Shown piece by piece: positions 64-13,262 of a DNA stretch of 13,262 nt (position 1 is its first letter; the number at the start of each line of letters is the position of its first letter). The stretch comes from an uncultured Erysipelotrichaceae bacterium. Lineage in GTDB: Bacteria > Bacillota_I > Bacilli_A > RF39 > UBA660. The DNA is taken from the NCBI GenBank assembly GCA_902768065.1, contig CACXJP010000042.1, positions 1 through 13,262 on the forward strand. The letters run 5' to 3'. Both the position numbers and the translations under genes were made by a program. The notes under the pieces are model-generated. The model was given only the letters and a program-made list of their open reading frames with translations. It ran no database searches and had not been told where the DNA came from.

Positions 64-150
64 AGTGATTCTTATGAATGAAAATAAAATGAATATCAAT
101 TGGTTGACTTGTATTTATGATGTACTGGCTTGTAATATGCCGACACATTT
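64..150 (+). repeat. Inter-cassette element copy 0 (type A, core deleted)
   Basis: This copy keeps the leader start (ATGAATGAAAATAAA), the conserved AATTGGTTG, a V1 box (ACTTGTATTTATG) and a V2 box (GGCTTGTAATATGCCG, 127-142). About 125 bp between the boxes is missing compared with the copies at 826-1043, 2324-2539 and 5911-6127. The boxes start about 21 bp apart instead of 145-146. The loss is not a simple V1 x V2 crossover, because both boxes remain. It lies before a broken HAD gene, so this end of the array looks eroded. Confidence 0.8.
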
Positions 151-184
151 TATACCAATAGAAGAGGTGAATTATGAATTATAA
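74..184 (+). CDS. Leader peptide of element copy 0 (36 aa, read through V2)
   Basis: The small ORF starts with MNENKMNINWL, the form seen in the other elements. Because the core is deleted, the frame runs on through V2 (VLACNMPTHF) and ends 11 bp inside the downstream HAD gene, which starts at 174, so translation could be coupled. The only ribosome binding site is a weak AGTGAT. The N-terminal 11 codons are shared with the other copies and partly differ by synonymous changes (ATC for ATA). The rest is probably a by-product of the deletion. No function is known. Confidence 0.5.
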   Translation: MNENKMNINWLTCIYDVLACNMPTHFIPIEEVNYEL

Positions 185-827
185 ATATATTGCTTTAGAC
201 TTTGGAAAAGTTGTAGCAGCACCCACGACTTGAAGTTGGGATATAACTCCTAAGTTTTTAGAATTGATAGATATAAATAAAATAAATATTGATATATTTA
301 AAGAATTAAGAAAACAATATGGTAGTATATTATCAGAAATGGTTACGACTTTAGATGAAGAATATAATATGTTTATTAGATTCTATGAACCAATTCTAAA
401 AGAATTTGGCTATTCTAGAGATATTGCAGAAAAAATTGCGTATGACAGAACTTATAATTTTGATAAATATACTTTATATGAAAATATACATAATGAATTA
501 AAAAAGTTGAAGGAAAAATATAAATTAATTCTTCTAACCGATAATTGGCCTTGTGTTATTGATTATTTAAAAGAATACAATTTGTATGATTTTTTTGATA
601 ATATATATATTTCTTCTATGTATGGAGTTGAAAAGAAAGATAAAATATTATTTGACTATCCAATTAATGAATTAAATTTAAAACAAGGTGAAGCATTATT
701 TATTGATGATAATGAGTCTAATCTAGATATTGCTAAAGAAAAAAACTTTGATGTAATGTTAATGGATAGGGAAAATAAAATTAATGATAGTAAATATAAA
801 ATAATTAATAATTTAAATAATATTTAA
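174..827 (+). pseudogene. HAD-superfamily hydrolase, interrupted by an in-frame TGA
   Basis: The frame starts at ATG 174 behind AGAGGTGAATT and reads MNYKYIALDFGKVVAAPTT, then TGA at 231-233, then continues in the same frame to TAA 825-827. HAD signatures are visible: motif I around D9 (LDFGK, without the usual second Asp), motif II LLTDN near codon 122, the motif III lysine in GVEKKD near codons 154-155, and motif IV FIDDNESN near codons 178-179. About 217 codons is normal for a small HAD phosphatase. The stop probably replaces a GGA glycine by one base change. TGA is a true stop elsewhere here, so I call it a pseudogene. Restart at a later codon would lose the catalytic Asp9. It is the first cassette, and its element copy is also damaged. 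Its substrate is unknown. Confidence 0.8.
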
Positions 828-1043
828 AGGAGGTAATCCAAATGAATGAAAATAAAACTAATATAAACTGGTTGGCTTGTATTTATGGCGACTATCACTT
901 AAACCCTTATAAAATGGGAGTTTTTAAGAATTGAGATTTTGCAAGTTTTAGTAAAAAAAGAAGAAAAATTTGAAAAAATAGGGTAAAATATACTCATTTT
1001 TGTGAGAAATTAGGGTACTGGCTTATAACATGCCGACACATTT
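826..1043 (+). repeat. Inter-cassette element copy 1 (type A)
   Basis: The element begins at the ribosome binding site AAAGGAGG, which touches the HAD stop codon. It has a leader ORF at 842-934, V1 at 874-890, a core hairpin at 898-928 (CTTAAACCC pairing with GGG plus TTTAAG), the motif GATTTTGCAAGTTT, and V2 at 1020-1040 (GGCTTATAACATGCCG). V1 and V2 start 146 bp apart. A 57-bp cassette-specific link separates it from the carboxypeptidase start, longer than the usual 20-27 bp. Confidence 0.85.
842..934 (+). CDS. Element leader peptide, type A (30 aa)
   Basis: Starts at ATG 842 behind a strong AGGAGG. The peptide begins MNENKTNINWLACIYG and ends ...KMGVFKN at TGA 932-934. The last third of the ORF runs through the core hairpin, so a translating ribosome would melt it. 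Type A leaders at 2339 and 5926 have the same length and nearly the same sequence. It has no membrane segment or signal. It could be a regulatory leader peptide or a by-product of the repeat. Synonymous differences among copies favour selection on the peptide. Confidence 0.55.
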   Translation: MNENKTNINWLACIYGDYHLNPYKMGVFKN

Positions 1044-1100
1044 ATATTTTAGTAAGATTGATAATGAATAGTTTGATATTTAATAAATGAGGTGATGATA

Positions 1101-1685
1101 ATGAATTATTTAATTGTTATTAATAAATCAAATCTAATAGATGCTAGTTATTTTGATAATTTAGAATTGGTAGAGTGTGATGATGTTCTTGGTGAAACTA
1201 TTAGTGTCGAAAAAGAAACATATGCTGCATATCTTAAATTAAAAAAATTTTTAAAAACCAAGAATATTTTTATTGAATTAGATTCTGCATATAGAAGTAT
1301 AGAAGAACAGCAAAGAATTATTGATGATTACACTATAAAATATGGTATTGATTATGTTAATAAATATGTTGCCCCAATAAAAACTAGCGAACATCATACT
1401 GGATTAGCTATAGATTTAGCATTAGTAGTTAATGGAAAAAAATTAATAAAAAATGAAGATTTATTTGCTAATGAAAATATTTATTTAGAAATACATAAAT
1501 ATTTAAGTGATTTTGGCTTTATTTTGAGATATCCTAAGGGAAAAGAAAATATAACAGGCTATAATTATGAACCATGGCATATTAGATATGTCGGCATAGA
1601 GAATGCTAGATTTATTTCTAGTAATAATTTAACATTAGAAGAATATATGATTCAATGTAATAATGGAGTTGATGCAAATGAATGA
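1101..1685 (+). CDS. VanY/VanX-type D-alanyl-D-alanine carboxypeptidase (zinc peptidase, M15-like)
   Basis: A 194-aa protein. The start at ATG 1101 is preceded by GAGGTG at the right distance; an upstream GTG at 1092 overlaps that site and is unlikely. The M15 motif SxHxxGxAxD is at residues 96-105 (zinc ligands H98 and D105), EPWH at 157-160 supplies the general base E157 and third ligand H160, and R65 lies in SAYRS, equivalent to the conserved SGYRS. The family removes terminal D-Ala from peptidoglycan precursors, which in van clusters gives glycopeptide resistance. There is no signal peptide or membrane anchor, so a cytoplasmic VanXY-like or recycling role is possible. Substrate and resistance are inference. 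Its last codons and TGA stop (1683-1685) lie inside the next element, overlapping the next leader ORF by 8 bp, so the C-terminal GVDANE is encoded by repeat sequence. Confidence 0.85.
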   Translation: MNYLIVINKSNLIDASYFDNLELVECDDVLGETISVEKETYAAYLKLKKFLKTKNIFIELDSAYRSIEEQQRIIDDYTIKYGIDYVNKYVAPIKTSEHHTGLAIDLALVVNGKKLIKNEDLFANENIYLEIHKYLSDFGFILRYPKGKENITGYNYEPWHIRYVGIENARFISSNNLTLEEYMIQCNNGVDANE

Positions 1686-1887
1686 AAATAAAACTAATAT
1701 AAATTGGTTGATAACAATTTAGTCAAGACCAGTGTTAAAACATTATAATATAAGGGAAAACGCAAAAATAGATTTTGCATGTTCATGTTAAAATATATAT
1801 AAAACTGGTGAAAATTAGTGAAAATAGAGTGATTTTTAATAAAAATTGCTTAGGAATTGACATGGTGAGAACGGCTAGTCAAGACCA
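1664..1887 (+). repeat. Inter-cassette element copy 2 (type B)
   Basis: It starts with GGAGTTGATGCAAATG inside the 3' end of the carboxypeptidase gene. V1 is 1707-1730 (ending TAGTCAAGACC) and V2 is 1865-1886 (GTGAGAACGGC then TAGTCAAGACC), 158 bp apart. The core has a weak hairpin near 1741-1756 and the motif GATTTTGCATGTT. GGAATTGAC just before V2 can pair with GTCAAGACC of V2. A 22-bp link leads to the GNAT start. Confidence 0.85.
1678..1722 (+). CDS. Element leader peptide, type B (MNENKTNINWLITI)
   Basis: A 14-aa ORF with a GGAG ribosome binding site. It stops at TAG 1720-1722, whose bases are the first of the TAGTCAAGACC V1 box. The identical peptide is encoded at 3132-3176, and close forms at 3931, 5298 and 12891. 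The start overlaps the 3' end of the carboxypeptidase gene, so the two are probably coupled. The peptide has no recognised function. Confidence 0.55.
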   Translation: MNENKTNINWLITI

Positions 1888-1909
1888 AGTAAAAATAGAG
1901 GTGAAATAA

Positions 1910-2323
1910 ATGAATATTAAAATCTATCATGAAATGTCAAATGAAGATTTTTTGGAAGTAATACAATCAGTTGGATTTAAGACATATAGTAATGAACAAG
2001 TAACAAAAGCATTAGAAAACACAATGTATATGGTTAAAGTTGAAGTAGATGGTAAGTTAGCTGGAATTGGACGAGTTGTTGGTGATTATAGTATTGTATG
2101 TTGCCTTTCTGATATTTGTGTTAAACCTGAATTTCAGAAAAAAGGAATTGGTTTAATTATTGTGAATGAATTAAAGAAAATGATAGAAGAGGGTGTTAAA
2201 GAAGGTGAAAAGATGCAAATTGAATTAACACCCACTGCAGGTAATGAAGCATTTTATCAAAAAGCAGGATTTAAGTATAAACCAGATGTTATAACTGGTA
2301 TGTATTTATGGATAAAAAAATAA
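1910..2323 (+). CDS. GNAT-family N-acetyltransferase
   Basis: A 137-aa protein starting at ATG 1910 behind GAGGTGAAATAA. It is a single GNAT domain. The beta4-alpha3 acetyl-CoA pyrophosphate loop is Q76-K-K-G79-I-G81 after the strand LSDICVKPEF, and the C-terminal part has the typical GNEAFYQKAGFKY near 111-123. Enzymes of this size transfer the acetyl group of acetyl-CoA to an amine on a small molecule or peptide. The acceptor cannot be predicted. It fills one cassette between a type B and a type A element, and the next element starts at its stop codon. Confidence 0.88.
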   Translation: MNIKIYHEMSNEDFLEVIQSVGFKTYSNEQVTKALENTMYMVKVEVDGKLAGIGRVVGDYSIVCCLSDICVKPEFQKKGIGLIIVNELKKMIEEGVKEGEKMQIELTPTAGNEAFYQKAGFKYKPDVITGMYLWIKK

Positions 2324-2539
2324 AAGGAGTTGATCCAAATGAATGAAAATAAATCTAATATAAATTGGTTGGCTTGTATTTATGCCGGCTATCACTTAAA
2401 CCCTTATAAAATGGGGATTTTTAAGAAATGAGATCTTGCAAGTTTTAATAAAAAATAAGAAATAATTAGAAAAATATATTAAAATATGCTCATTTTTGAG
2501 AGAAATTAGAGTACTGGCTTGTAATATGCCGACACATTT
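2324..2539 (+). repeat. Inter-cassette element copy 3 (type A)
   Basis: It starts with AAGGAGTTGATCCAAATG one base after the GNAT stop. V1 is 2371-2387 (GGCTTGTATTTATGCCG), V2 is 2516-2536 (GGCTTGTAATATGCCG plus ACACA), with starts 145 bp apart. The core hairpin is 2395-2425, followed by GATCTTGCAAGTTT. This copy has the closest V1/V2 match of all. A 26-bp link leads to the glycosylase start. Confidence 0.85.
2339..2431 (+). CDS. Element leader peptide, type A (30 aa)
   Basis: Starts MNENKSNINWLACIYAG behind AAGGAG and ends at TGA 2429-2431 just past the core hairpin. It differs from the 842-934 leader at a few residues (T6S, G16A, D17G, V27I, N30K) and by a synonymous AAC/AAT at Asn9. Its role is unknown. 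Confidence 0.55.
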   Translation: MNENKSNINWLACIYAGYHLNPYKMGIFKK

Positions 2540-2565
2540 AAATTTATAAAAAAGAGGGTGATAAA

Positions 2566-3117
2566 ATGCAATTATCAGATATTGATATTGAAATACATAA
2601 ATGTAATTTATGTAGTGATATGATAGAAAAATTTCCTAACAGTAAAACTGTATCAGTAGGAAAAAGAAATGATATAGTTATATTAGGTGAAGCTCCTGCT
2701 AATAATGGTTGGAGAAAAAGTGGTATTGCATGGTATGACATAAATCATAAATTATTGCCTTCTGGTCTAGTACTTCAAAAGTTATTAGATGAAATTAATT
2801 TAAAAATTGAAGATACTTATTTTCTAGAGGCAATTAAATGTTATCCAAAAGATAGAAAGTATTTAAATAAATGTAGTGAGAATTGTAAAAAATATTTATT
2901 TAAACAACTTGAAATAATTAAACCAAAAGTAGTATTATCATTAGGTGATGCGGCAACTAAATCTATATTAAATATGAAATATAAAAAGTTTAGTGATGTA
3001 GTAGGTAAAACTTTTGATGTAAATGGATATAAAGTTATTCCTATATATCATCCAAGTCCCATATCACCAATGAGTTATAAAGGTAATATAGAAATATTTA
3101 AAAATATAAAAATATAA
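2566..3117 (+). CDS. Uracil-DNA glycosylase superfamily protein, iron-sulfur (family 4-like)
   Basis: A 183-aa protein starting at ATG 2566 behind GAGGGTG. Family marks: an N-terminal CxxC (C13, C16), GEAPANNGW at 41-49 (water-activating motif I region), KCYP at 91-94, a further cysteine at C107, and the HPSP loop at 162-165. C13, C16, C92 and C107 have the layout of the [4Fe-4S] ligands in family 4 uracil-DNA glycosylases, which excise uracil to start base-excision repair. Compared with GEAPG of typical members, motif I reads GEAPA, so activity may differ. It is a lone cassette gene. A role in defence or DNA editing cannot be judged from sequence. Confidence 0.82.
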   Translation: MQLSDIDIEIHKCNLCSDMIEKFPNSKTVSVGKRNDIVILGEAPANNGWRKSGIAWYDINHKLLPSGLVLQKLLDEINLKIEDTYFLEAIKCYPKDRKYLNKCSENCKKYLFKQLEIIKPKVVLSLGDAATKSILNMKYKKFSDVVGKTFDVNGYKVIPIYHPSPISPMSYKGNIEIFKNIKI

Positions 3118-3341
3118 AGGAGTTGATTCTCATGAATGAAAATAAAACTAATATAAATTGGTTGATAACAATTTAGTCAAGACCGCTGCTAAACCCTTAT
3201 AATATAAGAGATAATTAAAAAATAGATCTTGCATGTTTATGTTAAAATATATAAAAAAATGATAAAAATTAGTGAAAATAGAGTTTTTTTAAGTAAAAAT
3301 TTATTAGGAATTGACATGGCGAGAACAGCTAGTCAAGACCA
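3117..3341 (+). repeat. Inter-cassette element copy 4 (type B)
   Basis: It starts with AAGGAGTTGATTC, abutting the glycosylase stop. V1 is 3161-3184, V2 is 3319-3340, with starts 158 bp apart. The core has CCCTTATAATATAAG from 3194 and GATCTTGCATGTTT. GGAATTGAC before V2 can pair with GTCAAGACC. A 22-bp link leads to the Nudix start. Confidence 0.85.
3132..3176 (+). CDS. Element leader peptide, type B (MNENKTNINWLITI)
   Basis: The same 14-aa peptide as at 1678-1722, behind an AAGGAG site. It ends at TAG 3174-3176 at the edge of the TAGTCAAGACC box. No function is known. Confidence 0.55.
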   Translation: MNENKTNINWLITI

Positions 3342-3363
3342 AGTTAAAATTGAGGTGGTATTT

Positions 3364-3918
3364 ATGACATTGAGGGAACAGTTAGAAAAATATATTCCTT
3401 ATGATGAACAAGAAGAAAGAGATAAAGAACAGATGTTAAAATTCATAAATGATTATGATGATGTTTTGACTAGAAATAATATATTTGGTCATTTTTCGGC
3501 ATCTGCATTTGTTGTAAATAAAGAAAGAACAAAAATGGTTGTTGTTTATCATATTATAAATGATGGTTGGATTTATCCAGGAGGTCATGCTGATGGTGAA
3601 GAAGATTTGTTATCGGTTGCTGTTCGTGAAGTTGAAGAAGAGACTGGATTAAAAGTTAAAGTATTAGATAATAATATATATTCTATTCAATCAGCACCTG
3701 TAAAAGGGCACATTAAACGTGGTAAGTATGTTTCAGCTCATTTGCATTTAGACATTTTATATATTATGGAAGCAGATGATACTATTCCACTAGTTTATAG
3801 AGAAGATGAGTCAAAAGGAGTTAAGTGGATTTCCTTTGAAGAAGCAGATAATGAAACAATGTGTGATTTTATTAGACCAATACATAAGAAATTAATAAAG
3901 AAATTAAAAGATAGATAG
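3364..3918 (+). CDS. Nudix hydrolase
   Basis: A 184-aa protein. I choose ATG 3364, behind GAGGTGG, because the longer upstream frame from 3229 only translates the repeat element. The full Nudix box GX5EX7REUXEEXGU runs from G74 to L96 (GGHADGE...REVEEETGL), supplying the metal-binding glutamates. Nudix enzymes split nucleoside diphosphates linked to another group, such as oxidised dNTPs, NDP-sugars or ADP-ribose. The segment before the box (YHIINDGWIYPGGH) is typical of a house-cleaning pyrophosphohydrolase, but the substrate is not predictable. The stop TAG abuts the next element. Confidence 0.88.
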   Translation: MTLREQLEKYIPYDEQEERDKEQMLKFINDYDDVLTRNNIFGHFSASAFVVNKERTKMVVVYHIINDGWIYPGGHADGEEDLLSVAVREVEEETGLKVKVLDNNIYSIQSAPVKGHIKRGKYVSAHLHLDILYIMEADDTIPLVYREDESKGVKWISFEEADNETMCDFIRPIHKKLIKKLKDR

Positions 3919-4126
3919 GAGATGATCCAAATGAATGAAAATAAAACTAATATCAACTGGTTGATATTGATTTAGTCTAGCCATTCATGGAACTCCTATA
4001 AAATAAGGAAAAAACAAGTATATACATGTTACATAATTTGATAAAAATATATAAAGTAATGATAATAATAACTAAAAAGGTATCAAAAATAGCATAGTAT
4101 TTGATACTTGGTATTGACGGTTAAAC
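3916..4126 (+). repeat. Inter-cassette element copy 5 (divergent type C)
   Basis: The 5' part is typical (AGGAGATGATCCAAATG, leader, ACTGGTTG), then V1 reads GATATTGATTTAGTCTAGCC. The core keeps CCTATAAAATAAGG (near 3994) but the TTGCA motif is not clear. A unique perfect 8-bp stem, GTATCAAA (4080-4087) with TTTGATAC (4100-4107), precedes a V2-like TTGGTATTGACGG (4108-4120). V2 matches V1 only over TTGRTATTGA. A related stray box lies at 5191-5215, after the two genes that follow this element. Confidence 0.7.
3931..3975 (+). CDS. Element leader peptide, type C (MNENKTNINWLILI)
   Basis: A 14-aa ORF behind AGGAG, ending at TAG 3973-3975. It differs from the type B leader only by L for T at residue 13, although the DNA after TGGTTG differs more. 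ATC and AAC replace ATA and AAT in the I-N codons, both silent. Confidence 0.5.
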   Translation: MNENKTNINWLILI

Positions 4127-4149
4127 TTTTGAAAAAAGAGGTTGATATT

Positions 4150-4719
4150 ATGGATAGGCCAGAATTAAATAAAAAGTTAGATAGTAAAACATTTAGAGAT
4201 TATTATTATTTAAAAGAAGAGTTAATTGATTTTTGTAGAAAGAATAATTTACAAACTACTGGTAGTAAAATAGAATTAACAGATAGAATATCAAAGTATC
4301 TTGATACTGGAGAAATAATATCTAAGACTTATGATTCCAGGAGAACAAAAATAATAGATGAAATAACTCTTGATAGTATAATAGAAGATAACTTTGTATG
4401 CTCTGAAAAACATAGAGCATTTTATAAAAAAGAAATAGGTAATAGTTTTTCATTTAATGTATTATTTCAAAAATGGTTAAAAAGCAATGCAGGAAAAACT
4501 TATAAAGAATCAATAGATGCATATTATAAAATATTAGAAGATAAAAAGAATAATAAAACTACTATTGATAAACAGTTTGAATATAATACATATATTAGAG
4601 ATTTTTTTAATGATAATAAAGATAAGACACTTGAAGATGCTATTAAATGTTGGAAATATAAAAAGAGTTTAAAAGGTCATAACAAATATGAGAAAGAAGA
4701 TTTAAAGGTGTTACTATGA
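4150..4719 (+). CDS. SAP-domain protein with C-terminal DUF6434-like region
   Basis: A 189-aa protein. ATG 4150 follows GAGGTTGATATT; the longer frame from 4108 is element sequence. Residues about 20-52 (LKEELIDFCRKNNL...GSKIELTDRISKYL) form a SAP-like helix-extended-loop-helix, a fold that usually binds DNA or RNA. The C-terminal part, with FxYNxYIRDFF and AIKCWKYKK, matches my memory of proteins annotated DUF6434; that assignment needs a profile search. No catalytic motif is visible. The protein is highly charged and soluble. The stop TGA overlaps the next gene's ATG (ATGA at 4716-4719), so the two are translationally coupled and form the only two-gene cassette here. Confidence 0.75.
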   Translation: MDRPELNKKLDSKTFRDYYYLKEELIDFCRKNNLQTTGSKIELTDRISKYLDTGEIISKTYDSRRTKIIDEITLDSIIEDNFVCSEKHRAFYKKEIGNSFSFNVLFQKWLKSNAGKTYKESIDAYYKILEDKKNNKTTIDKQFEYNTYIRDFFNDNKDKTLEDAIKCWKYKKSLKGHNKYEKEDLKVLL

Positions 4720-5135
4720 ATTTAGATAAAATTGAAAAATTTATTGATAAACAAAAAGTAAGTTTTATTTGTTCAGTTGATGATGATAATTGTCCAAATG
4801 TTAAAGCAATGCTAAAACCTAGAAAAAGAAATGGTTTAAAAGCATTTTATTTTTCTACTAATACATCATCAATGAGAGTAAAACAATATATGAAAAATCC
4901 AAACGCTAGTATTTATTTTTATCACAAAGGATTAATTAAATATGTTGGTGTTATGTTAAAAGGTAAAATGGAAATATTAACAGACCAAGAAACTAAAAAT
5001 ATGATTTGGAAAAAAGGCGACACAATGTTTTATAAAAAAGGTGTAACTGATCCAGATTATTGTGTTTTAAAATTTACTGCTACAAGTGGTAGATACTACT
5101 CTGATTTAAAAACTGAAAGTTTTGATATAAAATAA
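4716..5135 (+). CDS. Pyridoxamine 5'-phosphate oxidase-fold (flavin-binding split barrel) protein
   Basis: A 139-aa protein whose ATG overlaps the SAP gene by 4 bp; AAAGGTG lies upstream. The pattern is typical of small PNPOx-like proteins: an N-terminal helix (LDKIEKFIDKQ), then strands SFICSVDDDNCPNVKAM, KAFYFSTNTSSMRVKQYMKNPNASIYFY and VGVMLKGKMEILTD, and a final LKFTATSGRYYSD. Members bind FMN, F420 or haem and carry out varied reductions, or act as general stress proteins. The length is normal for this stand-alone group. The cofactor cannot be told from sequence. It ends 56 bp before a stray element box and 100 bp before a terminator. Confidence 0.8.
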   Translation: MNLDKIEKFIDKQKVSFICSVDDDNCPNVKAMLKPRKRNGLKAFYFSTNTSSMRVKQYMKNPNASIYFYHKGLIKYVGVMLKGKMEILTDQETKNMIWKKGDTMFYKKGVTDPDYCVLKFTATSGRYYSDLKTESFDIK

Positions 5136-5190
5136 ATAGAAAATTAAGAGATTATGATTTGCCATATGACCAGGTAACTATTATGGTTAA

Positions 5191-5215
5191 CTTGGTATTG
5201 GATTAGTCTAACTAC
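5191..5215 (+). repeat. Stray type C-like element box
   Basis: CTTGGTATTGG (5191-5201) followed by ATTAGTCTAACTAC joins two pieces that are separate in element copy 5: the V2-like CTTGGTATTGACGG (4107-4120) and the V1-like TTTAGTCTAGCC. No leader, core hairpin or gene follows directly. It may be the 3' relic of a lost element, or the right-hand end of the SAP/PNPOx cassette. Confidence 0.45.
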
Positions 5216-5234
5216 GATAAAAGACCTAAAAATG

Positions 5235-5264
5235 GACGGAATTATACTAAATTTCGTCTTTTTT
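5235..5264 (+). terminator. Rho-independent terminator after the first cassette module
   Basis: GACGGAATT (5235-5243) pairs with AAATTTCGTC (5249-5258), including one G-T pair, and is followed by six T residues (5259-5264). It would end transcription from the array genes at 174-5135. It leads straight into an extended -10 promoter. Confidence 0.8.
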
Positions 5265-5265
5265 A

Positions 5266-5274
5266 TGCTATAAT
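5266..5274 (+). promoter_or_regulatory. Extended -10 promoter for the second cassette module
   Basis: TGCTATAAT is a perfect extended -10. The position 17 bp upstream falls in the terminator stem and has no TTGACA-like hexamer, as expected for extended -10 promoters. The start point would be near 5281, about 17 bp upstream of the leader ATG at 5298. Confidence 0.65.
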
Positions 5275-5284
5275 TGAATAGAAA

Positions 5285-5504
5285 TGGAGTGATTCCTATG
5301 GATAATAAAACTAACATCAACTGGTTGATAACAATTTAGTCAAGACCGCTCCTAAATCCTTATAAAATAAGGTAAAACTCAAAAATAGATCTTGCATATT
5401 TATACTGAAACATATAGAAAAATGATAAAAATTAGTGAAAATAGAGTGATTTTAAGTAATAATTTCTTAGGAATTGATATGGTGAGAACGGCTAGTCAAG
5501 ACCA
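5285..5504 (+). repeat. Inter-cassette element copy 6 (type B)
   Basis: It starts with TGGAGTGATTCCTATG. V1 is 5324-5347 and V2 is 5482-5503, starts 158 bp apart. The core has a perfect CCTTATAAAATAAGG hairpin at 5358-5372 and GATCTTGCATATTT. Before V2 the sequence is GGAATTGAT rather than GGAATTGAC, which still allows a G-U pair with GTCAAGACC in RNA. A 20-bp link leads to the second GNAT. Confidence 0.85.
5298..5339 (+). CDS. Element leader peptide, type B (MDNKTNINWLITI)
   Basis: A 13-aa ORF behind GGAG, closely preceded by the promoter at 5266-5274. The core N-K-T-N-I-N-W-L-I-T-I is identical to other type B leaders although three codons differ silently (AAC, ATC, AAC). It ends at TAG 5337-5339. 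Confidence 0.55.
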   Translation: MDNKTNINWLITI

Positions 5505-5524
5505 ATAAAAAAGAGGTGACTAAT

Positions 5525-5920
5525 ATGAAATTTTCCAATGATTATGAAGATGTTGAAAAAGTTGTTATAAAATTATCGGAAAAAGATTTATTATTTATTT
5601 GTAATGGTACTTTTAGAAGGTCTCCTTATACAAAATATAGACTATGTTTAATAATTGATAATGAAAGTATTGGGTTTATAGAAGTGTATAATTTACCTGA
5701 TGAAGAATATGAATTTATAGTAATCGCAATTAGCCCAAAATATAGAGGTAAAGGATATTCATACATACTATTAGATAAAATGTTTGAAGAATATAATAAT
5801 AGATATCCATATTTATGGAGATGTGATAAAGACAATAATTATTCAATACATTTGGCAAAGAAATATAATTTTGTATTAATGAACGAAACAGAAACAAAAT
5901 ATGAATTCGAAAGGAAGTGA
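5525..5920 (+). CDS. GNAT-family N-acetyltransferase
   Basis: A 131-aa protein. ATG 5525 lies 6 bp after GAGGTG; an in-frame GTG at 5516 is part of that site and unlikely. The acetyl-CoA loop R74-G-K-G77-Y follows strand FIVIAISPKY, and the C-terminal half has the usual NYSIHLAKKYNF. It shares little with the GNAT at 1910-2323 beyond the fold, so the two are separate acquisitions rather than a duplication. The acceptor is unknown. Its stop TGA (5918-5920) lies within the GGAAGTGATCC start of the next element, so the last residues (ERK) are partly encoded by the repeat. Confidence 0.85.
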   Translation: MKFSNDYEDVEKVVIKLSEKDLLFICNGTFRRSPYTKYRLCLIIDNESIGFIEVYNLPDEEYEFIVIAISPKYRGKGYSYILLDKMFEEYNNRYPYLWRCDKDNNYSIHLAKKYNFVLMNETETKYEFERK

Positions 5921-6127
5921 TCCAAATGAATGAAAATAAAACTAATATAAACTGGTTGGCTTGTATTTATGTCGACTATCACTTAAACCTTTATAAAATG
6001 GGAGTTTTTAAGAATTGAGATCTTGCAAGTTTAAATAAAAAAGGAAGAAAAGCAATAAAAAATAGGGTAAAATATACTTATTTTTGGGAGGAATTAGGGT
6101 ACTGGCTTGTAATGTGCCGACACATTT
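5911..6127 (+). repeat. Inter-cassette element copy 7 (type A)
   Basis: It starts with AAGGAAGTGATCCAAATG inside the GNAT 3' end. V1 is 5958-5974, V2 is 6104-6124 (GGCTTGTAATGTGCCG plus ACACA), starts 146 bp apart. The core hairpin at 5982-6012 is weakened by CCT for CCC. GATCTTGCAAGTTT follows. It precedes the methyltransferase pseudogene by a 27-bp link. Confidence 0.85.
5926..6018 (+). CDS. Element leader peptide, type A (30 aa)
   Basis: Starts MNENKTNINWLACIYVD, ends ...KMGVFKN at TGA 6016-6018. It has the same length and stop position as the other type A leaders, although single bases vary. Its ribosome binding site AAGGAAG is weaker than in other copies. Confidence 0.55.
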   Translation: MNENKTNINWLACIYVDYHLNLYKMGVFKN

Positions 6128-6154
6128 TATATCAATAAAAAGAGGTGAATTCTA

Positions 6155-6957
6155 ATGCTTGAATCATATGAAAGTGTAAGTCCAACAGCAATACTTACAT
6201 CATATCCAAGAATAATTACAGATATTCCATATGAAAAAGATATATATGAATGGTTAAATAAAAATTGTAATGAGAAAGTTAAACTAAATAAACTATTAGC
6301 TCCATAATTAGAAGCAAGATATAAACTGGCTAATAAACTTCTAGATAAACAAAATGTAACTCAAATTTTAGAGCTTGCTGCAGGTTATACTTCTAGAGGA
6401 TTAACATATTCAAAAAATGGATATAAGTATGTTGAAATAGATTTAGAAGAAGTTTCTACTAATAAGAAAAAAATAATAAATGAGTTATTTGAAATGAATA
6501 ATAATTTACATATAGTAGATGGAAATGCACTTAATATGGAAGACTATATTAAATGTGAAAAATATTTTGATGATAATAAAGAATTATTAATTATAAATGA
6601 AGGACTGCTTAGATATTTAACATTTGATGAAAAGAAAAAAGTTGGTCAAAATATTTATAGTATGCTTAAAAAATATGGTGGTGCATGGATTACTTGTGAT
6701 GTAACTCCTAAAAAGTTTATTCAAAAGCAAGATGAACAAAATCCAACACTTAATGATAATATAAATAATATTACTTCAAGAAATAATTTAAATGATAGAT
6801 TTGAAGATGAAAATCATATAAGAACTTTTTTTGGAGAAATAGGATTTAATACTAATGAAATCCATAAGTTTATTGAAGTAAAAGATGAATTAAAATCTTT
6901 TGATATACTAGGTATAGATAAAGACTCATGTGATGAATTATTAGATAGTGCATTAGT
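6155..6957 (+). pseudogene. COG3315-like SAM-dependent O-methyltransferase, nonsense-mutated and 3'-truncated
   Basis: ATG 6155 follows AGAGGTG. The frame reads MLESYESVSPTAILTSYPR and meets TAA at 6305-6307 (codon 51, probably GAA in the ancestor), then continues in the same frame. The second part shows class I methyltransferase motifs: ILELAAGYTSRG (SAM-binding motif I) and YVEIDLEEV (motif II acidic residue). It also has NEGLLRYLT, typical of the leucine carboxyl methyltransferase-like COG3315 group. Homology appears to end near 6957 (around ELLDSALV), where the sequence becomes the opposite-strand XRE gene; the frame reads on to 7084 by chance. Two independent lesions make it a pseudogene. 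The junction is accurate to about 10 bp. Confidence 0.75.
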
Positions 6958-7320
6958 TGCAATTAAAGGATTAACTTTAAATGCAGCAATACTAGATACT
7001 ATCCATGTAACTGCAACAAAGTATAATAGTATCCCTATTGCAAGTCCACCAATTCTCTTTTGTTTATTTTCTTTTGTGTCATAAATAATTTCAGATTTAT
7101 CATCTTTATTATTTATAATTTTCTTTTCTCCTGTAATTAATTTTTCTGTTGTAATACCAAATAATTCACATATTGGTAATATTTTATCAAAGTCAGGGGT
7201 ACTTTGATCTGTTTCCCATTTTGATACTGATTGTCTTGTTACATTAAGTTGATCAGCAACCTCTTCCTGTGATAAATGTTTTTCTTTTCTTAGTTTCATT
7301 AATCTTTGACCTAAGCTCAT
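6957..7320 (-). pseudogene. XRE-family regulator with C-terminal membrane segment, 3'-truncated
   Basis: The start is ATG 7320 behind GAGGTGAAAAT; an extended frame from 7368 lacks a binding site. Residues 4-60 form an HTH_3/XRE domain (LGQRLMKLRKEKHLSQEEVA, then NVTRQSVSKWE and PDFDKILPICELFGI). A hydrophobic segment follows at about 92-113 (GLAIGILLYFVAVTWIVSSIAA). Such proteins usually have further membrane or sensor residues. Here, after NPLIA (about residue 121), the frame continues into the reverse complement of the methyltransferase gene, so the native C-terminus was lost at the junction. The DNA-binding half may still be made. The chimeric ORF would end at 6814. Confidence 0.75.
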
Positions 7321-7352
7321 ATTTTCACCTCTTTCGCAATTAACTTTAACAT

Positions 7353-7397
7353 AATTTATCGGTTGCATACTACCAATTCAACACGGAAATTTGTCAA
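7353..7397 (-). promoter_or_regulatory. Candidate promoter region of the XRE regulator
   Basis: On the minus strand TTGAAT (7381-7376) and TAAATT (7358-7353) are 17 bp apart. An upstream consensus TTGACA (7397-7392) lies 19 bp from TAGTAT (7372-7367). GGTTG at 7361-7365 and CAACC at 7395-7399 form an inverted repeat that could be an autoregulatory operator. Which hexamers are used cannot be decided. Confidence 0.4.
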
Positions 7398-7438
7398 CCA
7401 ACGCTAACATTTTATATATTTTTCTATTAAATTATAAC

Positions 7439-7461
7439 AAAAAAAAGAATTTTTAAAATTC
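7439..7461 (-). terminator. Rho-independent terminator of the rdgB operon
   Basis: The near-palindrome GAATTTTTAAAATTC (7447-7461) overlaps the rdgB stop codon. On the minus strand it is followed by eight T residues (7446-7439). The stem is AT-rich and therefore of moderate strength. Confidence 0.65.
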
Positions 7462-8034
7462 TTTTAACATCTTTTCAATAGCTCTGCCTCTATGTGAAAC
7501 ATTATTTTTTTCTTCATCACTTGCTTCACCAAAAGTCTTATTTAATTCATTAGAATAGAATACACAATCATATCCAAATGATTTATCTCCAATTTCTTCT
7601 TCAGTAATATAACCATTAACTCTTCCTTCAAATGATTTTTTTACACCATCTGGATAAAGTACTGCAATTACGCAAACAAAATATGCATCTTTCTTCTTTC
7701 CAATTAATTCTTTTAAAAGCTTATCTCTATTATTTTGATCATTACAATCTTCTCCGGCATATCTTGCACTATAAATTCCAGGTTTTCCATCTAAAGAATC
7801 AACACATAATCCACTATCATCAGCAATTATAGTATAATTAAGACCTTTATCTTTTAAAAACTTACTAACACTATCAGTCTTAATAAAAGCATTCTCAACA
7901 AAACTATTTCCATCTTCAATAATATCTTCATGGAAATCTATATCATTTAAAGATAAAACTTCATAATTAGAAAGTATTTCTCTAAATTCTTTTAACTTAT
8001 GTTTATTATTAGTAGCTAAAACAATTTTTTCCAT
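7453..8034 (-). CDS. rdgB: XTP/dITP diphosphatase (non-canonical purine NTP pyrophosphatase, Ham1/RdgB)
   Basis: A 193-aa protein starting at 8034 behind AGGAG. Family motifs: ATNNKHK at 7-13 (substrate and phosphate contact), ADDSGLCVD at 71-79 (metal binding and catalysis), SARYAG at 89-94, FGYD at 153-156 and SHRGRA at 180-185. The family hydrolyses dITP and XTP to monophosphates and PPi, keeping deaminated purines out of nucleic acids. FGYDCVF has Cys where Pro is usual (FGYDPVF), probably a neutral change. Full length. It is the last gene of a three-gene operon, 20 bp after the LOG gene. Confidence 0.95.
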   Translation of the reverse strand: MEKIVLATNNKHKLKEFREILSNYEVLSLNDIDFHEDIIEDGNSFVENAFIKTDSVSKFLKDKGLNYTIIADDSGLCVDSLDGKPGIYSARYAGEDCNDQNNRDKLLKELIGKKKDAYFVCVIAVLYPDGVKKSFEGRVNGYITEEEIGDKSFGYDCVFYSNELNKTFGEASDEEKNNVSHRGRAIEKMLKEF

Positions 8035-8054
8035 ATTATTCTCCTATTAATTAT

Positions 8055-8630
8055 TTATTTTTTCTTTACATTTAAATCTTGAAATTGTCTTCCAACAAAA
8101 TTAATTAATTCATCCTTATCATTAAATATATTTAAATATTCATAAATACTATCATCATTAAAACCTTTATCAATATATTCTTTAATTTGTGAAAGCAATT
8201 GATTATAATGACCATCTTTATTATAAACAACTATAGTTTTAGGAGTTTTATTATCCCAAGAATCAGTACGTGCTTGTTCTAAAAAAGCAAACGCCTCAGC
8301 TATAGAACCAGTACCTCCCGGCATCATTATTAAAATATCACTTTCATCATAAATTCTTTTAGTTCTTTCAAATGTATCAGTAGAATACTCAAAATCTACA
8401 TAATCAAATTCTTTTGGATTTTCTCCATATACTTTTAAAGTCTTTAAATAAATTTTTCTATTATTATCTTTAAAGCTTTTTAATACTTCTCCTGGCATTC
8501 CTTCATTCATTGCAACACCAATTATTAAATCATATCCTAATTTAGCAATACCATCACTTATATATTTTGCATCATCTAAATAAAACTTATCAATTTTAGT
8601 TCTAGATGAAACTGAAAAAAAAGTTTTCAT
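8055..8630 (-). CDS. LOG-family (lysine decarboxylase-like) nucleotide-binding protein
   Basis: A 191-aa protein starting at 8630 behind GGAGGAGATTTT. It has a Rossmann-like fold. The diagnostic motif is MPGGTGSIAEAF at 103-114, matching the PGGxGTxxE motif of LOG proteins (E112 catalytic), and ERTKRIYDESD at 88-98 provides the basic residues usually found before it. LOG enzymes are phosphoribohydrolases that release cytokinin-like bases or split nucleoside 5'-monophosphates such as AMP. The SIAE variant instead of the usual GTxxE is a small departure. It lies 29 bp after the phosphoesterase and 20 bp before rdgB, consistent with a nucleotide-salvage theme. Confidence 0.82.
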   Translation of the reverse strand: MKTFFSVSSRTKIDKFYLDDAKYISDGIAKLGYDLIIGVAMNEGMPGEVLKSFKDNNRKIYLKTLKVYGENPKEFDYVDFEYSTDTFERTKRIYDESDILIMMPGGTGSIAEAFAFLEQARTDSWDNKTPKTIVVYNKDGHYNQLLSQIKEYIDKGFNDDSIYEYLNIFNDKDELINFVGRQFQDLNVKKK

Positions 8631-8659
8631 AAAATCTCCTCCATAATTTATATTTTACA

Positions 8660-9805
8660 TCATTTTGAAGAAATACGAAATTCTTTTCTTAAAACAGGAT
8701 TTTTTTCCTTAAATTTATATTCATAAGACTCTCCTTCATAAATATAACCATTATTATTACGTAACTCAGTAATAATCATTTTTAAAAGAGAATCATCCCT
8801 ATTAATTAAATCAATATTAAAACCAACAACTCCATCAATATTAAGAGAAGATGTAGAAGGAACAGTAATAAAACACTTATCTCTACCATTCCTATCGGAA
8901 TCAATAAATAATAATCCGTTATGTAAATGACCACATATACATACTGAATAATCATTACCTAAATCTTTAATATCTTTATCTATTTCATCAATATGATGTA
9001 ATATTTTTTTTCTTTCAATTGGATTAATATATAATCTATGCCCAAATCTAAATTCTTTATCAGAAAACTTAATACCTAAATTCTCATGACTATAGAAAAT
9101 AAATGAATTCTTATCTCTACTTAAAGATCTTAAATCACGATATGTTGGTCCACTAATTTTTAATAAACAGTTAACGCCATCACTACCATTAATTAATTCA
9201 TCATGATTACCACAAAGAGAATATGTTTTAATATCTGGAATATCAGGATAATTATCTAAAAATATCTTAATTTGTTCATCAAATTTATTTATTCTATCTT
9301 CTCCTAATACATTTGGCTTTAAACCATCAAAAAGATCCCCTAAATGAAAAACATGTTTAATATTATTTTTAACACAATAATCATAAACTCCATTAATAAT
9401 ATCAAAACTTTGTACTTCAAAATTACCAATATGTGTATCAGCAATTAAAACAAATCTTTTATCAGAAGAACCACAATCATCATAAAAATCACAAAATCCT
9501 CTTGCATATCTAGTATCTTGATATCTTTCACTTAATTTTTCGAAATACTCTGTCCCACTATAACAATCATGTCTAGCGATACTACTAAACTCACATAATA
9601 AAATATTTAAACATATTTTTATTTGTTCCAAAGTATATGGAACATTCTTTTTATCTAAATATTTCATAATATCATCAATTGTTACCATTTCAAAATCTTT
9701 AGTATGATATTGAAAGAAACTATCAACTTCCCCAAACAATTGACGAATATCTCTTTTATATACTTCATCCATTGCTTTAGAAAAGTCGCTAAAATATCGT
9801 CTCAT
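8660..9805 (-). CDS. Calcineurin-like metallophosphoesterase
   Basis: A 381-aa protein. I take ATG 9805, behind GAGGAG. The upstream ATG at 9826 directly abuts a perfect -10 hexamer, so it would precede the transcript start. The dimetal motifs are complete: D123-T-H125 (ADTHIGN), G156-D157 (HLGDLFDG), G199-N200-H201-D202 (CGNHDE) and G292-H293-L-H295 (CGHLHNG). About 115 N-terminal residues precede the catalytic domain and match nothing I recognise; they are helical, with no signal peptide. The substrate is unknown: phosphodiesters, nucleotides or nucleic acids are all possible. It is the first gene of the operon with the LOG protein and RdgB. Confidence 0.88.
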   Translation of the reverse strand: MRRYFSDFSKAMDEVYKRDIRQLFGEVDSFFQYHTKDFEMVTIDDIMKYLDKKNVPYTLEQIKICLNILLCEFSSIARHDCYSGTEYFEKLSERYQDTRYARGFCDFYDDCGSSDKRFVLIADTHIGNFEVQSFDIINGVYDYCVKNNIKHVFHLGDLFDGLKPNVLGEDRINKFDEQIKIFLDNYPDIPDIKTYSLCGNHDELINGSDGVNCLLKISGPTYRDLRSLSRDKNSFIFYSHENLGIKFSDKEFRFGHRLYINPIERKKILHHIDEIDKDIKDLGNDYSVCICGHLHNGLLFIDSDRNGRDKCFITVPSTSSLNIDGVVGFNIDLINRDDSLLKMIITELRNNNGYIYEGESYEYKFKEKNPVLRKEFRISSK

Positions 9806-9826
9806 AATACTCCTCACTTGGGGCAT

Positions 9827-9855
9827 ATTATACTATTTTTTTTCAAATAAGTAAA
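9827..9855 (-). promoter_or_regulatory. Promoter of the phosphoesterase-LOG-rdgB operon
   Basis: Reading the minus strand, TTTACT (9855-9850) is 17 bp from a perfect TATAAT (9832-9827). Transcription would start near 9820, giving a 5' leader of about 15 nt with the GAGGAG site. This placement decides the start codon of the phosphoesterase. Confidence 0.7.
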
Positions 9856-10577
9856 GTTTATCTTTACTCTTATTAAATAAATAATCCATAAATTTATCTA
9901 AATCATCAATTTTACCAGTAGAATTTCGATATTTAGTATTATTTCAACTAATATACTTAATGCATCATCATGTCCATCACTACTTAGTAATAAAGTAATT
10001 CTTTCAGGAGAAATATCATGTTTAAAATTAATAAAATGTGTAGACATATTCCATCTATCCATTTTTGCAGTTGTAAAATCAGAATTAACTCCATAGTACC
10101 ACATCAAATCTTTATCATCATCAGTTAAACTATCATGATCTAATAATTCTCTTTTTTGAAAATTTTCTTTTGAATCACAGTAATCACTAGTATAAGGATC
10201 ATTTCCACTAATTAAATCCAATTTTAAATATACTGCATTCTTAAGCATATCAATTACATCATCATACTCTTGCTCCATTAATTTATCATCAACACTAAAT
10301 CTCCCACTACGTAAGCCATTTCTTTTTTGCATGAATATCATAATTTCCTCTTATCCATATATCAAAAAGTTCAAGTACTCCACCAAAACCTTTAGAAAAA
10401 TATGTACAAGGATAATTCTCATCACCAGAATAAGTATTGGGTCTTTGTCTCGGTTCATTAGAAATACCTACCTTAGGTATACCCCGGTCCTTTTTCATTA
10501 TCAATCATATGAGCTTTATTTGAAAAATGAAAAAATGAATTTTCCTCATCAACTTCAGATAAAAACATAACTTTCAT
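9833..10577 (-). pseudogene. Unrecognised gene broken by three frameshifts
   Basis: The pieces read in order in three frames. From ATG 10577: MKVMFLSEVDEENSFFHFSN, ending at TAA 10475-10473. From about 10500: PKVGISNEPRQRPNTYSGDE through GFGGVLELFDIWIRG. From 10341 onward: RNGLRSGRFSVDDKL through SSDGHDDALSILVEII. From about 9940: KYRNSTGKIDDLDKF to TAG 9835-9833. Together they give about 245 residues. The breaks are near a GGACCGGGG tract (10476-10500), in a six-base homopolymer (10323-10328), and near 9926-9945. The product is acidic, soluble and not one I recognise. Homopolymer breaks could be assembly errors, in which case the gene may be intact. A weak AGGTAG precedes the start. Confidence 0.65.
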
Positions 10578-10657
10578 AATATCTACCTATTTTCATATAT
10601 ACATCAGATTTATATTATAAATAATCCCAGTATCTTTTTCTTTCTTTCATATATTTT

Positions 10658-11056: not shown

Positions 11057-11066
11057 AATTTTCTCC

Positions 11067-11849: not shown

Positions 11850-11868
11850 AGTTCCACCTCCTTTCGAC

Positions 11869-11901
11869 TTGTATTATATTCAGAAACGATGTATAATAAA
11901 A
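11869..11901. promoter_or_regulatory. Overlapping divergent promoters for lysR and the phospholipase-like gene
   Basis: On the plus strand TTGTAT (11869-11874) is 17 bp from TATAAT (11892-11897), toward lysR. On the minus strand TATAAT (11878-11873) has a weak TTTTAT (11901-11896) 17 bp upstream, toward the phospholipase-like gene. The two promoters overlap over some 30 bp, so RNA polymerase could bind only one at a time. Confidence 0.7.
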
Positions 11902-11918
11902 ATACTTTTTTTGAATGC

Positions 11919-11943: not shown

Positions 11944-11961
11944 ACAAAAGGGGGGAAAATT

Positions 11962-12846: not shown

Positions 12847-12864
12847 TACAACAAATAAATTTCA

Positions 12865-12879: not shown

Positions 12880-13120
12880 GGAGTGATAATATGAAAAATT
12901 CAGAAAATAATGATGTTCTTAACAAAACCGTAATCAACTGGTTGAGAACAATTTAGTCAAGACCGATTCCAAATCCTTATAAAATAAGGAAAAAGTAAAA
13001 AATAAATCTTGCATGTTTTATATAAAAATATGTTAAAATAGATAAAATATAGTAAAAATATAGTGTTTTTAAGCAAAATTGCTTAGGAATTGATAAGGTG
13101 AGAACGGATAGTCAAGACCA
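12880..13120 (+). repeat. Inter-cassette element copy 8 (type B, variant leader)
   Basis: V1 is 12941-12964 and V2 is 13098-13119 (both ending TAGTCAAGACC), starts 157 bp apart. The core has a perfect CCTTATAAAATAAGG hairpin at 12975-12989 and CTTGCATGTTT. The 5' end differs, with a longer leader. The V1 start GTTGAGAACA is closer to its V2 GTGAGAACGG than in other type B copies, as if this copy were older or less altered. It shows that the element system resumes after 6.7 kb of other genes. A 60-bp link leads to the ABC gene. Confidence 0.82.
12891..12956 (+). CDS. Element leader peptide, long type B variant (21 aa)
   Basis: It begins MKNSENNDVL and continues NKTVINWLRTI, ending at TAG 12954-12956. 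A GGAGTGATAAT site precedes the start. The N-terminus shares nothing clear with MNEN- leaders, yet N-K-T-x-I-N-W-L-x-T-I is kept with different codons. This is the best single sign that the peptide itself is under selection. Confidence 0.55.
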   Translation: MKNSENNDVLNKTVINWLRTI

Positions 13121-13180
13121 GACAAAGAACATATAATAAAAATTTTGTATGATATAAATGTTTGTTAGAGGTGTTTAAAG

Positions 13181-13262
13181 ATGATTAAAATAAAAGATAT
13201 ATATAAATCATATGGTGAAAAAGAAAATAAAGTTGAAGTATTAAAAGGAATTAATTTAAATA
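13181..13262 (+). CDS. ABC transporter ATP-binding protein (5' end only)
   Basis: ATG 13181 follows AGAGGTG. The 27 visible residues, starting MIKIKDIYKSYGEKENKVEV and followed by LKGINL, match the N-terminus of MacB/LolD/SalX-type ATPases, with the aromatic Y11 (A-loop) before the Walker A motif, which lies outside the window. Such ATPases often pair with an FtsX-like permease and export peptides or antibiotics. The gene runs off the right edge, so only the class is supported. Confidence 0.75.
   Translation, partial: MIKIKDIYKSYGEKENKVEVLKGINLN

What the first reader, a model, noticed from the sequence alone, without database searches (positions are those of the whole stretch)
64..6127. Cassette-like array: eight diverse single genes each preceded by a homologous ~215-bp element
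Eight element copies in 6 kb, all on the plus strand, alternate with unrelated small accessory genes (HAD, VanY, GNAT, UDG, Nudix, SAP+PNPOx, GNAT, methyltransferase). Each element starts at or within the stop codon of the previous gene. Gene content and layout match integron cassettes, but no attC pattern is visible and no integrase is in the window. It could be a different cassette-collecting system in an AT-rich Bacillota-like genome, or a shared regulatory leader spread with resistance genes.
Basis: partly seen in the sequence, partly recalled or inferred. Interest (0 to 1): 0.9.

Follow-up and report, generated by a model that had tools for sequence, protein, structure and literature searches.

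The report
Gene-cassette array at the rbgA start
Rumen and gut bacteria line up single, unrelated genes one after another at the start of an essential gene (rbgA), each unit bringing its own copy of that gene's start, so they seem to collect mobile genes as integrons do but probably with a different class of enzyme.

Summary
The repeat is real. Eight full copies in the window match one strict pattern, none expected by chance, and a shortened copy opens the array. The "leader ORF" of the copies (typically MNENKTNINW) is the start of rbgA/ylqF, a ribosome-assembly GTPase. In related Bacilli the same elements form one-strand arrays of up to 18 copies upstream of rbgA. Of 135 printed elements outside rbgA itself, the 74 on the rbgA contig all lie upstream on its strand. 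A unit (median 897 bp) is a variable site half, about 150 bp of AT-rich DNA ending in a repeat of that half, a gene, and a new rbgA start. Twenty-six cassette families recur on several contigs without a repeated neighbour pair. In 9 of 11 compared genome pairs shared cassettes are 91.7-97.5% identical, rbgA 66-80%. Large serine recombinases, single or paired, often sit just upstream of rbgA, and some elements carrying them have the same left end; others showed none. Best reading: an integron-like platform run by large serine recombinases that integrate at the 5' end of rbgA. Array and gene mobility are shown; recombinase action is inferred. It is not an integron, nor SCC by the models tested. 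Seven open-access literature searches found no description.

The parts
64..868 (+). Unit 1: rbgA-start sequence (ATG 74, TG at 101-102), shortened site element, HAD-family gene (ATG 174, stop 825-827) interrupted by TGA at 231-233
826..870 (+). Copy 2, RBS + rbgA start MNENKTNINW up to the invariant TG
869..1704 (+). Unit 2 (type 1 site, 3' repeat near 1015-1043) with VanY-family gene ending at 1685
1662..1706 (+). Copy 3, rbgA-start sequence; overlaps the end of the VanY ORF
1705..2365 (+). Unit 3 (type 2 site, 3' repeat near 1862-1887) with GNAT gene 1910-2323
2323..2367 (+). Copy 4, rbgA-start sequence
2366..3158 (+). Unit 4 (type 1 site, 3' repeat near 2511-2539) with UDG-superfamily gene 2566-3117
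3116..3160 (+). Copy 5, rbgA-start sequence
3159..3957 (+). Unit 5 (type 2 site, 3' repeat near 3316-3341) with NUDIX gene 3364-3918; the same gene with a shortened element in G008 (95.7% nt over 627 bp)
3915..3959 (+). Copy 6, rbgA-start sequence
3958..5321 (+). Unit 6 (type 3 site, 3' repeat near 4107-4126) with SAP/DUF6434 gene 4150-4719 and PNPOx-like gene 4716-5135; the same unit in G005 (96.6%) and G010 (93.5%)
5272..5323 (+). Copy 7, rbgA-start sequence, version MDNKTNINW
5322..5952 (+). Unit 7 (type 2 site, 3' repeat near 5479-5504) with GNAT gene ending at 5920
5910..5954 (+). Copy 8, rbgA-start sequence
5953..7010 (+). Unit 8 (type 1 site, 3' repeat near 6099-6124) with a leucine-carboxyl-methyltransferase-like gene from ATG 6155, interrupted by TAA at 6305-6307; right end not defined
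12889..13262 (+). Copy 9: rbgA-start version MKNSENNDVLNKTVINW (ATG 12892, TG at 12939-12940), type 2 site, 3' repeat near 13095-13120, start of an ABC-transporter ATPase-like gene (by eye, from about 13181, cut by window end); first 324 bp from the TG 98.8% identical to a unit in G005

Best explanation
The array is a tandem series of mobile single-gene cassettes inserted at the 5' end of rbgA. Each cassette runs from a TG dinucleotide through a type-specific right half-site, about 100-150 bp of AT-rich DNA, a second copy of that half-site, an RBS and the cargo gene, to an RBS plus a replacement rbgA start ending at the same TG. Because a cassette ends in an rbgA start, insertion between TG and the rest of rbgA leaves the essential gene readable, and a new site is always present. 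I infer that a large serine recombinase, encoded by conjugative or small elements that occupy the same site, joins circular cassettes (start-TG-variable half) to rbgA or to array junctions with TG as crossover dinucleotide, and can excise them. Shown: array anatomy, position at rbgA, gene sharing without shared neighbours, identity contrast, linkage of recombinases to rbgA, same kind of left end in some recombinase-bearing elements. Inferred: circles, the enzyme acting in trans on cassettes, the role of the second half-site.
For: (1) Identity of the leader: arrays that reach their end run into rbgA whose N-terminus is the leader itself, e.g. MNENKTNINWFPGHM; the G003 RbgA matches TIGR03596 from residue 18 on, after the extension. 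In an aligned set of 279 copies T and G are invariant (278 of 278 each) and the base after them varies; left of TG the variation is mainly at third codon positions of NIN, as expected of coding sequence. (2) Position: 18 of 18 contigs with both an element and an rbgA start have all elements upstream on the rbgA strand (three more rbgA contigs held no element); in a family sample chosen by taxonomy, which shares at least nine genomes with the first set, 74 of 74 elements on rbgA contigs in 32 genomes (rows). (3) Order without insertion L19 (rplS)-signal peptidase (lepB)-rbgA in G073 and G048; in G032 elements lie between lepB and rbgA. (4) Exchange: 26 shared families among 188 complete units, no repeated neighbour pair. 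Cassette against rbgA nt identity: 95.2 v 70.3, 94.6 v 67.8, 94.9 v 68.0, 92.4 v 67.0, 94.0 v 66.1. (5) Enzyme: the 10 closest relatives of one recombinase (53-100%, 9 genomes): in all 9 genomes one ends within 160 bp of rbgA, same strand; 9 of the 10 have a second recombinase directly before them, the tenth (G031) starts at a contig end. In the first 12 genomes 6 have a relative before rbgA: pairs in G001, G003, G004, single in G005, G008, a shortened one in G002 with another ORF between. (6) Some elements bearing the enzymes begin with the same kind of site: ICE in G003 and G001 (in G001 left and right end are on different contigs), short units in G103 and G091, the stretch after the first pair in G126.
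Against: No circle, excision or strain pair was seen. Three array-bearing genomes (G006, G010, G011) have no such recombinase and G007 and G009 only relatives of at most 36%. Left ends were not found for most recombinase pairs: of the pair-bearing loci fetched in the family sample, only G126 showed an element; none was found in the stretches of G123, G083, G015, G020 and G119 (2.6 to about 17 kb before the pair, contig ends reached) nor in G138 over about 58 kb before rbgA, nor in the 3.5 kb of G069; G060 gave only a doubtful match (E 0.034). So the shared left end is shown for a few elements only. Several right half-site types share one array and I could not assign a recombinase to each. In many shared units the cargo ORF matches from about its RBS to its stop while the upstream element and the downstream rbgA start differ; movement of whole units does not explain that. 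rbgA was the only core gene compared. Most genomes are MAGs.
Confidence: 0.77

Rival explanations
1. The array is old debris of repeated insertions by large elements at rbgA; genes are now shuffled only by homologous recombination between the repeated element copies, without site-specific cassette mobility.
For: ORFs swap between element types with breakpoints near RBS and stop; mosaic elements join two types near the conserved TATAAAATAAGG; short and long forms differ by loss of about 156 bp between direct repeats; leftmost copies tend to be weaker (16 of 23 arrays, Wilcoxon p 0.04, many contigs truncated); most recombinase pairs examined showed no element at their left.
Against: Units are small, fairly regular (median 897 bp), in one orientation, upstream of rbgA; the TG is invariant while its right neighbour varies; some whole units, site to start, are 97-99% identical between contigs, e.g. 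F13 99.1% over 1099 bp and F4 98.2% over 389 bp; single-recombinase units of the same build exist.
Confidence: 0.16
2. The element is a shared regulatory leader (attenuator or leader-peptide device) that spread with accessory genes.
For: It precedes each gene, opens with a conserved RBS and ORF, and ends before the gene's RBS.
Against: The ORF is the rbgA start and arrays lie upstream of rbgA; consensus folding gave no structure or at most -4.4 kcal/mol in six type groups; no Rfam family; the two repeats in an element are direct, not complementary.
Confidence: 0.04
3. A tyrosine recombinase integrates the units at rbgA, as for Tn5253-type ICEs in streptococci (PMC8571831, PMC4701971, passages read).
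For: Those elements use the same 5' end of rbgA and restore its reading frame.
Against: In 12 array genomes no PF00589 match lies in the array or directly before rbgA; the nearest in G003 is about 30 kb from the array inside the ICE, between reading frames that I take by eye for hsdS subunits. Serine recombinases do lie directly before rbgA in part of the genomes.
Confidence: 0.03

Closest known systems
Integrons / chromosomal integrons (IntI, attI, attC; features recalled)
   Same: Linear one-strand arrays of single genes, each with a site, diverse cargo shared between species, arrays without a recombinase nearby.
   Different: No IntI-type match beside arrays, no foldable attC-like element; linked enzymes are large serine recombinases; target is an essential gene, and each cassette carries a replacement start for it.
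Staphylococcal and enterococcal cassette chromosomes (SCC/ECC; CcrA, CcrB)
   Same: Adjacent pair of large serine recombinases, attachment site inside a conserved housekeeping gene (PMC6222049, passages read).
   Different: SCC/ECC sit at the 3' end of rlmH and ECCs are 21 kb and more; here the site is the 5' end of rbgA and most units carry one gene. The recombinases score only 91.6-107 bits against the CcrB model with a cut-off of 900.
Tn5253-type ICEs at rbgA
   Same: Same target position (first codons of rbgA), reading frame restored, attL equal to attB (PMC8571831, abstract and passages).
   Different: Tyrosine integrase (PMC4701971, passages), large ICE, no single-gene arrays mentioned in the passages read.
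Tandem accretion of ICEs/IMEs at one site (recalled)
   Same: Several elements stacked at one attachment site; G126 has two recombinase pairs about 38 kb apart before rbgA with an element copy right after the first.
   Different: The cassettes examined carry no mobility gene, with few exceptions, and up to 18 element copies stand in a row.

Membership tests
Integron | IntI-type tyrosine recombinase gene next to the array | tested here: not met
   PF00589 matches in 11 of 12 array genomes, none in an array or directly before rbgA
Integron | attC sites (imperfect inverted repeats folding to a hairpin) | tested here: not met
   no consensus structure or negligible energy in six type groups; repeats are direct. 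No dedicated attC model was run
Integron | Array of single-gene units in one orientation with species-crossing cargo | tested here: met
Integron | Circular cassette intermediates, insertion by recombinase | not testable with these tools
   no read data
SCC/ECC | ccr recombinase genes | tested here: not met
   three recombinases, CcrA/CcrB/CcrC models at 56-107 bits, cut-offs 700-900
SCC/ECC | Insertion at the 3' end of rlmH | tested here: not met
   arrays lie at the 5' end of rbgA
Large serine recombinase integrative element | Resolvase + Recombinase + Zn-ribbon protein at one end of the element | tested here: met
   for the G003 ICE and small units; the cassettes in the window carry none
Large serine recombinase integrative element | Central dinucleotide shared by all recombining sites, where strands are exchanged | tested here: inconclusive
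   TG in 278 of 278 copies and the next base varies; rbgA starts have TG in their Trp codon, but they were found with patterns that require it, and strand exchange was not observed
Large serine recombinase integrative element | Recombinase-bearing element flanked on the left by the same site as the cassettes | tested here: inconclusive
   found for G003, G001, G103, G091, G126; not found for G123, G083, G015, G020, G119, G138, G069, in most of them because contigs or fetched stretches end
Tn5253-type ICE | Tyrosine integrase next to rbgA | tested here: not met

The most novel reading that the evidence does not exclude
This is a gene-capture platform that arose independently of integrons: large serine recombinases build arrays of single-gene cassettes at the start of an essential gene, every cassette carrying both the recombination site and a spare start of that gene, and ORFs are additionally swapped between site modules from start codon to stop codon.
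Probability: 0.58. Interest if true: 0.95.

Novelty: new variant of a known kind. Interest (0 to 1): 0.88.

Why it matters
Integrons are the textbook case of arrays of single mobile gene cassettes. A second, enzymatically unrelated way to build such arrays in gut Bacillota would show that the cassette lifestyle evolved more than once, would expose a large pool of small shared genes (acetyltransferases, hydrolases, VanY-like, RhuM, ADP-ribosylglycohydrolase and unknowns) moving between species of ruminant microbiomes, and would make an open question of the integron field, how an ORF becomes a cassette, testable in a system with simple double-stranded sites. If the recombinases work in vitro they would also be new site-specific integration tools.

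Tried and rejected
Regulatory RNA: no Rfam match; RNAalifold on six type groups gave no structure, or at most -4.4 kcal/mol with almost no covariation. Phage or plasmid origin: no blastn match of one element in either collection; one IMG/VR contig, L075, carries elements. Tyrosine recombinase: PF00589 positions do not fit. Polar growth: leftmost copies are weaker in 16 of 23 arrays (p 0.04), mean rank correlation only 0.09, so suggestive at most. Assigning a recombinase to each half-site type: not possible from these data. Left ends of further recombinase pairs: not found in G123, G083, G015, G020, G119 and G138. Recoding of TGA as Trp in the window: not followed further. Placing the window in a genome: none held, and its metallophosphatase has only weak partial matches in three of the 12 array genomes.

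Novelty searches: five full-text searches by topic and two for rbgA/ylqF with recombinases listed no paper describing such arrays; the library holds open-licence PMC papers only, and of the listed papers I saw titles and abstract starts.

Rows dropped: 7 of 74 stretches (L008, L012, L033, L034, L042, L061, L063) were left out of later counts because the context looked like chance matches in other groups. In one search I had left out rows by hand; one search repeats it with the 150 rows that one search printed (the call says that more matches are not listed). In one search units over 6 kb and contig-edge units were not counted. One search's own class for rbgA starts came out empty, so its 279 rows may include a few rbgA starts. 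The 11 pairs were picked by me among those with an rbgA sequence.
Full report
What the window shows. Eight full copies of one element lie on the + strand (pattern starts 863 to 12933; 8 matches, 0 expected) and a shortened copy opens the array. Between copies are unrelated small genes. Copies start with an RBS and a short reading frame, typically MNENKTNINW..., then a variable segment that recurs about 150 bp further on as a direct repeat. In the window there are three types of variable segment, seen best as GGCTTGTATTTATG.CGAC (type 1), GATAACAATTTAGTCAAGACC (type 2) and GATATTGATTTAGTCTAGCC (type 3). Across 187 units the 5' segment matches its own unit's 3' region better than those of other units (mean local score 22.5 against 17.8; 0 of 2000 permutations as high; own among the top 10% for 90 of 187 and best or tied for 17, many units sharing a type). 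A shorter form lacking the middle exists: the NUDIX unit of the window (3159-3957) has a 95.7% identical partner in G008 that lacks about 156 bp.

What the leader is. A scan of GTDB genomes with the core pattern found 74 stretches, by their titles mostly Bacilli, Bacillales, Erysipelotrichaceae, Clostridia or Tenericutes MAGs, many from ruminant samples; seven looked like chance. In arrays that run to their end, the last copy of the reading frame continues into RbgA/YlqF, e.g. MNENKTNINWFPGHMAKTK in G010. The G003 protein matches TIGR03596 at 323 bits (cut-off 208.2) from residue 18 on. So the leader is the beginning of rbgA, repeated once per unit. In an aligned set of 279 copies the T and G of the Trp codon are invariant (278 of 278). 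The third codon positions of Asn-Ile-Asn vary synonymously to the left, and the base after TG may be G, T, C or A. The left half therefore behaves as coding sequence and the right half does not, with the change right after TG.

Where arrays sit. Of 21 contigs with an rbgA start in the first set, 18 also hold elements, and in all 18 the elements lie upstream on the rbgA strand. In 145 genomes of the GTDB family of G003 searched with a sequence-only profile, 68 had a match (at least nine of these genomes also belong to the first set). Of the 150 rows printed, 15 are rbgA starts themselves and 135 are elements in 59 genomes; 74 of the 135 lie on the rbgA contig (32 genomes) and all 74 are upstream on its strand. 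56 lie on other contigs and 5 in genomes without an rbgA row. In a phylum-wide sample 12 of 392 genomes had a match, seven of them also in the family sample (fewer candidates were scored per genome, so this is a lower bound). The order without insertion is ribosomal protein L19 - signal peptidase - rbgA with nothing between the last two in G073 and G048; in G032 genes and elements lie between the signal peptidase gene and rbgA. Native starts there are short (MSINW in G073, MEKINW in G048); starts next to arrays carry the extension.

Units move between species. From 188 complete units (median 897 bp, quartiles 742 and 1290), 26 families recur on more than one contig at 75% nucleotide identity or more over more than 60% of the length, and no pair of neighbouring families recurs. 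Eleven genome pairs sharing a cassette were compared with their rbgA genes. In 9 of the 11 the shared cassettes are 91.7-97.5% identical while rbgA is 66.1-79.8%, for example 95.2 against 70.3, 94.6 against 67.8, 97.5 against 79.8 and 91.7 against 77.8. In the other two the contrast is smaller: 83.9 against 69.1 and, for G002 with G003, 85.5 and 78.7 against 67.9. Cassette values are local BLAST identities for most pairs and rbgA values global ones; no other core gene was compared. The window's SAP/PNPOx unit is 96.6% identical to one in G005 and 93.5% to one in G010, and its ABC unit (first 324 bp) 98.8% to one in G005; the neighbours differ.

The likely enzyme. In G003 (a 204,883-base contig) the array of 18 copies is followed by about 38 kb with ParB, a TraG-like ATPase, a coupling protein and a MobL relaxase, i.e. 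an ICE, ending in two adjacent large serine recombinases (566 and 522 aa; Resolvase, Recombinase and Zn-ribbon domains) and then rbgA. The last of the 18 copies is the ICE's own left end. In the family sample the 10 closest relatives of the second recombinase (53-100% identity) lie in 9 genomes, and in each of the 9 one ends within 160 bp of rbgA; 9 of the 10 follow a second recombinase directly, and the tenth (G031) begins at a contig end. The next relatives (40-46%) are often single: four of them (G060, G069, G091, G103) also lie within 550 bp upstream of rbgA, two degraded ones (G072, G092) within 2.6 kb, and others (for example in G094 and G144) on other contigs. In the printed list, which is capped, relatives below 39% other than the first members of the pairs were common and none was beside rbgA. 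In the 12 array genomes first studied, 6 have a relative before rbgA (in G002 a shortened one with another ORF between), G012 has two on its array contig, G007 and G009 have only distant ones and G006, G010 and G011 none. G103 and G091 hold short units of element + recombinase + rbgA start, which could be the ancestors of cargo cassettes. G126 has two recombinase pairs about 38 kb apart, with an element directly after the first. Against this, no element was found before the pairs of G123, G083, G015, G020 and G119, where contigs end 2.6 to about 17 kb before the pair, nor in about 58 kb before rbgA in G138.

Mechanism. A circle carrying [rbgA start-TG-variable half] recombines with rbgA [start-TG-GTWTCCAGG] at TG. 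The product is [old start-TG-variable half-gene-new start-TG-rest of rbgA]. The gene stays readable, the junction keeps a site, and the process can repeat. This follows from the anatomy; the steps from circle to insertion are inferred. The 150-bp segment and the second half-site may be accessory binding sites; no RNA structure supports a transcript role.

What does not fit. Many shared cargo ORFs match from about their RBS to their stop codon, while both the element before and the rbgA start after them belong to other versions. Mosaic elements join two types near TATAAAATAAGG. So besides moving whole units, ORFs and site modules are reshuffled, perhaps by homologous recombination at short conserved stretches. 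How a new ORF enters is open, as it is for integrons (recalled).

Comparison. It works like an integron but is not one by the features tested: no IntI-type gene at the array, no folding site. It resembles SCC/ECC in using paired large serine recombinases and a conserved gene as target (PMC6222049, passages), but the recombinases fall far below the Ccr model cut-offs and gene, gene end and unit size differ. Tn5253-type ICEs use the same rbgA end with a tyrosine integrase (PMC8571831 abstract and passages; PMC4701971 passages). Seven literature searches showed no description of these arrays.

Limits. Most genomes are MAGs; the GTDB family is not named by the tools; no reads or isolates were examined; the window itself contains neither rbgA nor, among the ORFs scanned, a recombinase, and its genome is not held.

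Noticed in passing
window 231-233 and 6305-6307: In-frame TGA in the HAD gene and TAA in the methyltransferase-like gene: first and last units of the array look inactivated.
   Followed up: partly
window 6814-12846: A block of mostly minus-strand genes (helix-turn-helix protein whose end overlaps the methyltransferase, Ham1-family, lysine-decarboxylase-like, metallophosphatase, NMN-transporter-like) and a plus-strand LysR gene separates the array from the ninth element copy at 12892.
   Followed up: partly
window 1092-1685: VanY-family carboxypeptidase closest to the VanXY model but well below its cut-off (128 against 250 bits).
   Followed up: no
L087:10578-11594, L131, L138: RhuM-family proteins (one confirmed by Pfam; others by eye) and BRO-N-like proteins (by eye) recur in and around the arrays.
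   Followed up: partly
G012 contig C54 (L100): Two serine recombinase genes (one with a stop) lie on the array contig, apparently inside array units.
   Followed up: partly
G126:C10 (L114-L116): Two recombinase pairs about 38 kb apart before rbgA, with an element copy right after the first: looks like two tandem integrated elements; the genes between were not read.
   Followed up: partly
G138:C2 (L120, L146, L147): A recombinase pair beside rbgA but no element found in about 58 kb upstream: its left end is lost, lies further away or is too different for the profile.
   Followed up: partly
L077, L080 units: A cargo protein shared by five contigs (MEYILGYDCDGNEIYEYRVLRAIW...) has no Pfam family; others are queuosine salvage, ADP-ribosylglycohydrolase, peptidase C26.
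   Followed up: partly
L075: An IMG/VR contig of 6512 bases carries three elements and two complete units, so either these units enter viruses or the contig is misclassified.
   Followed up: no
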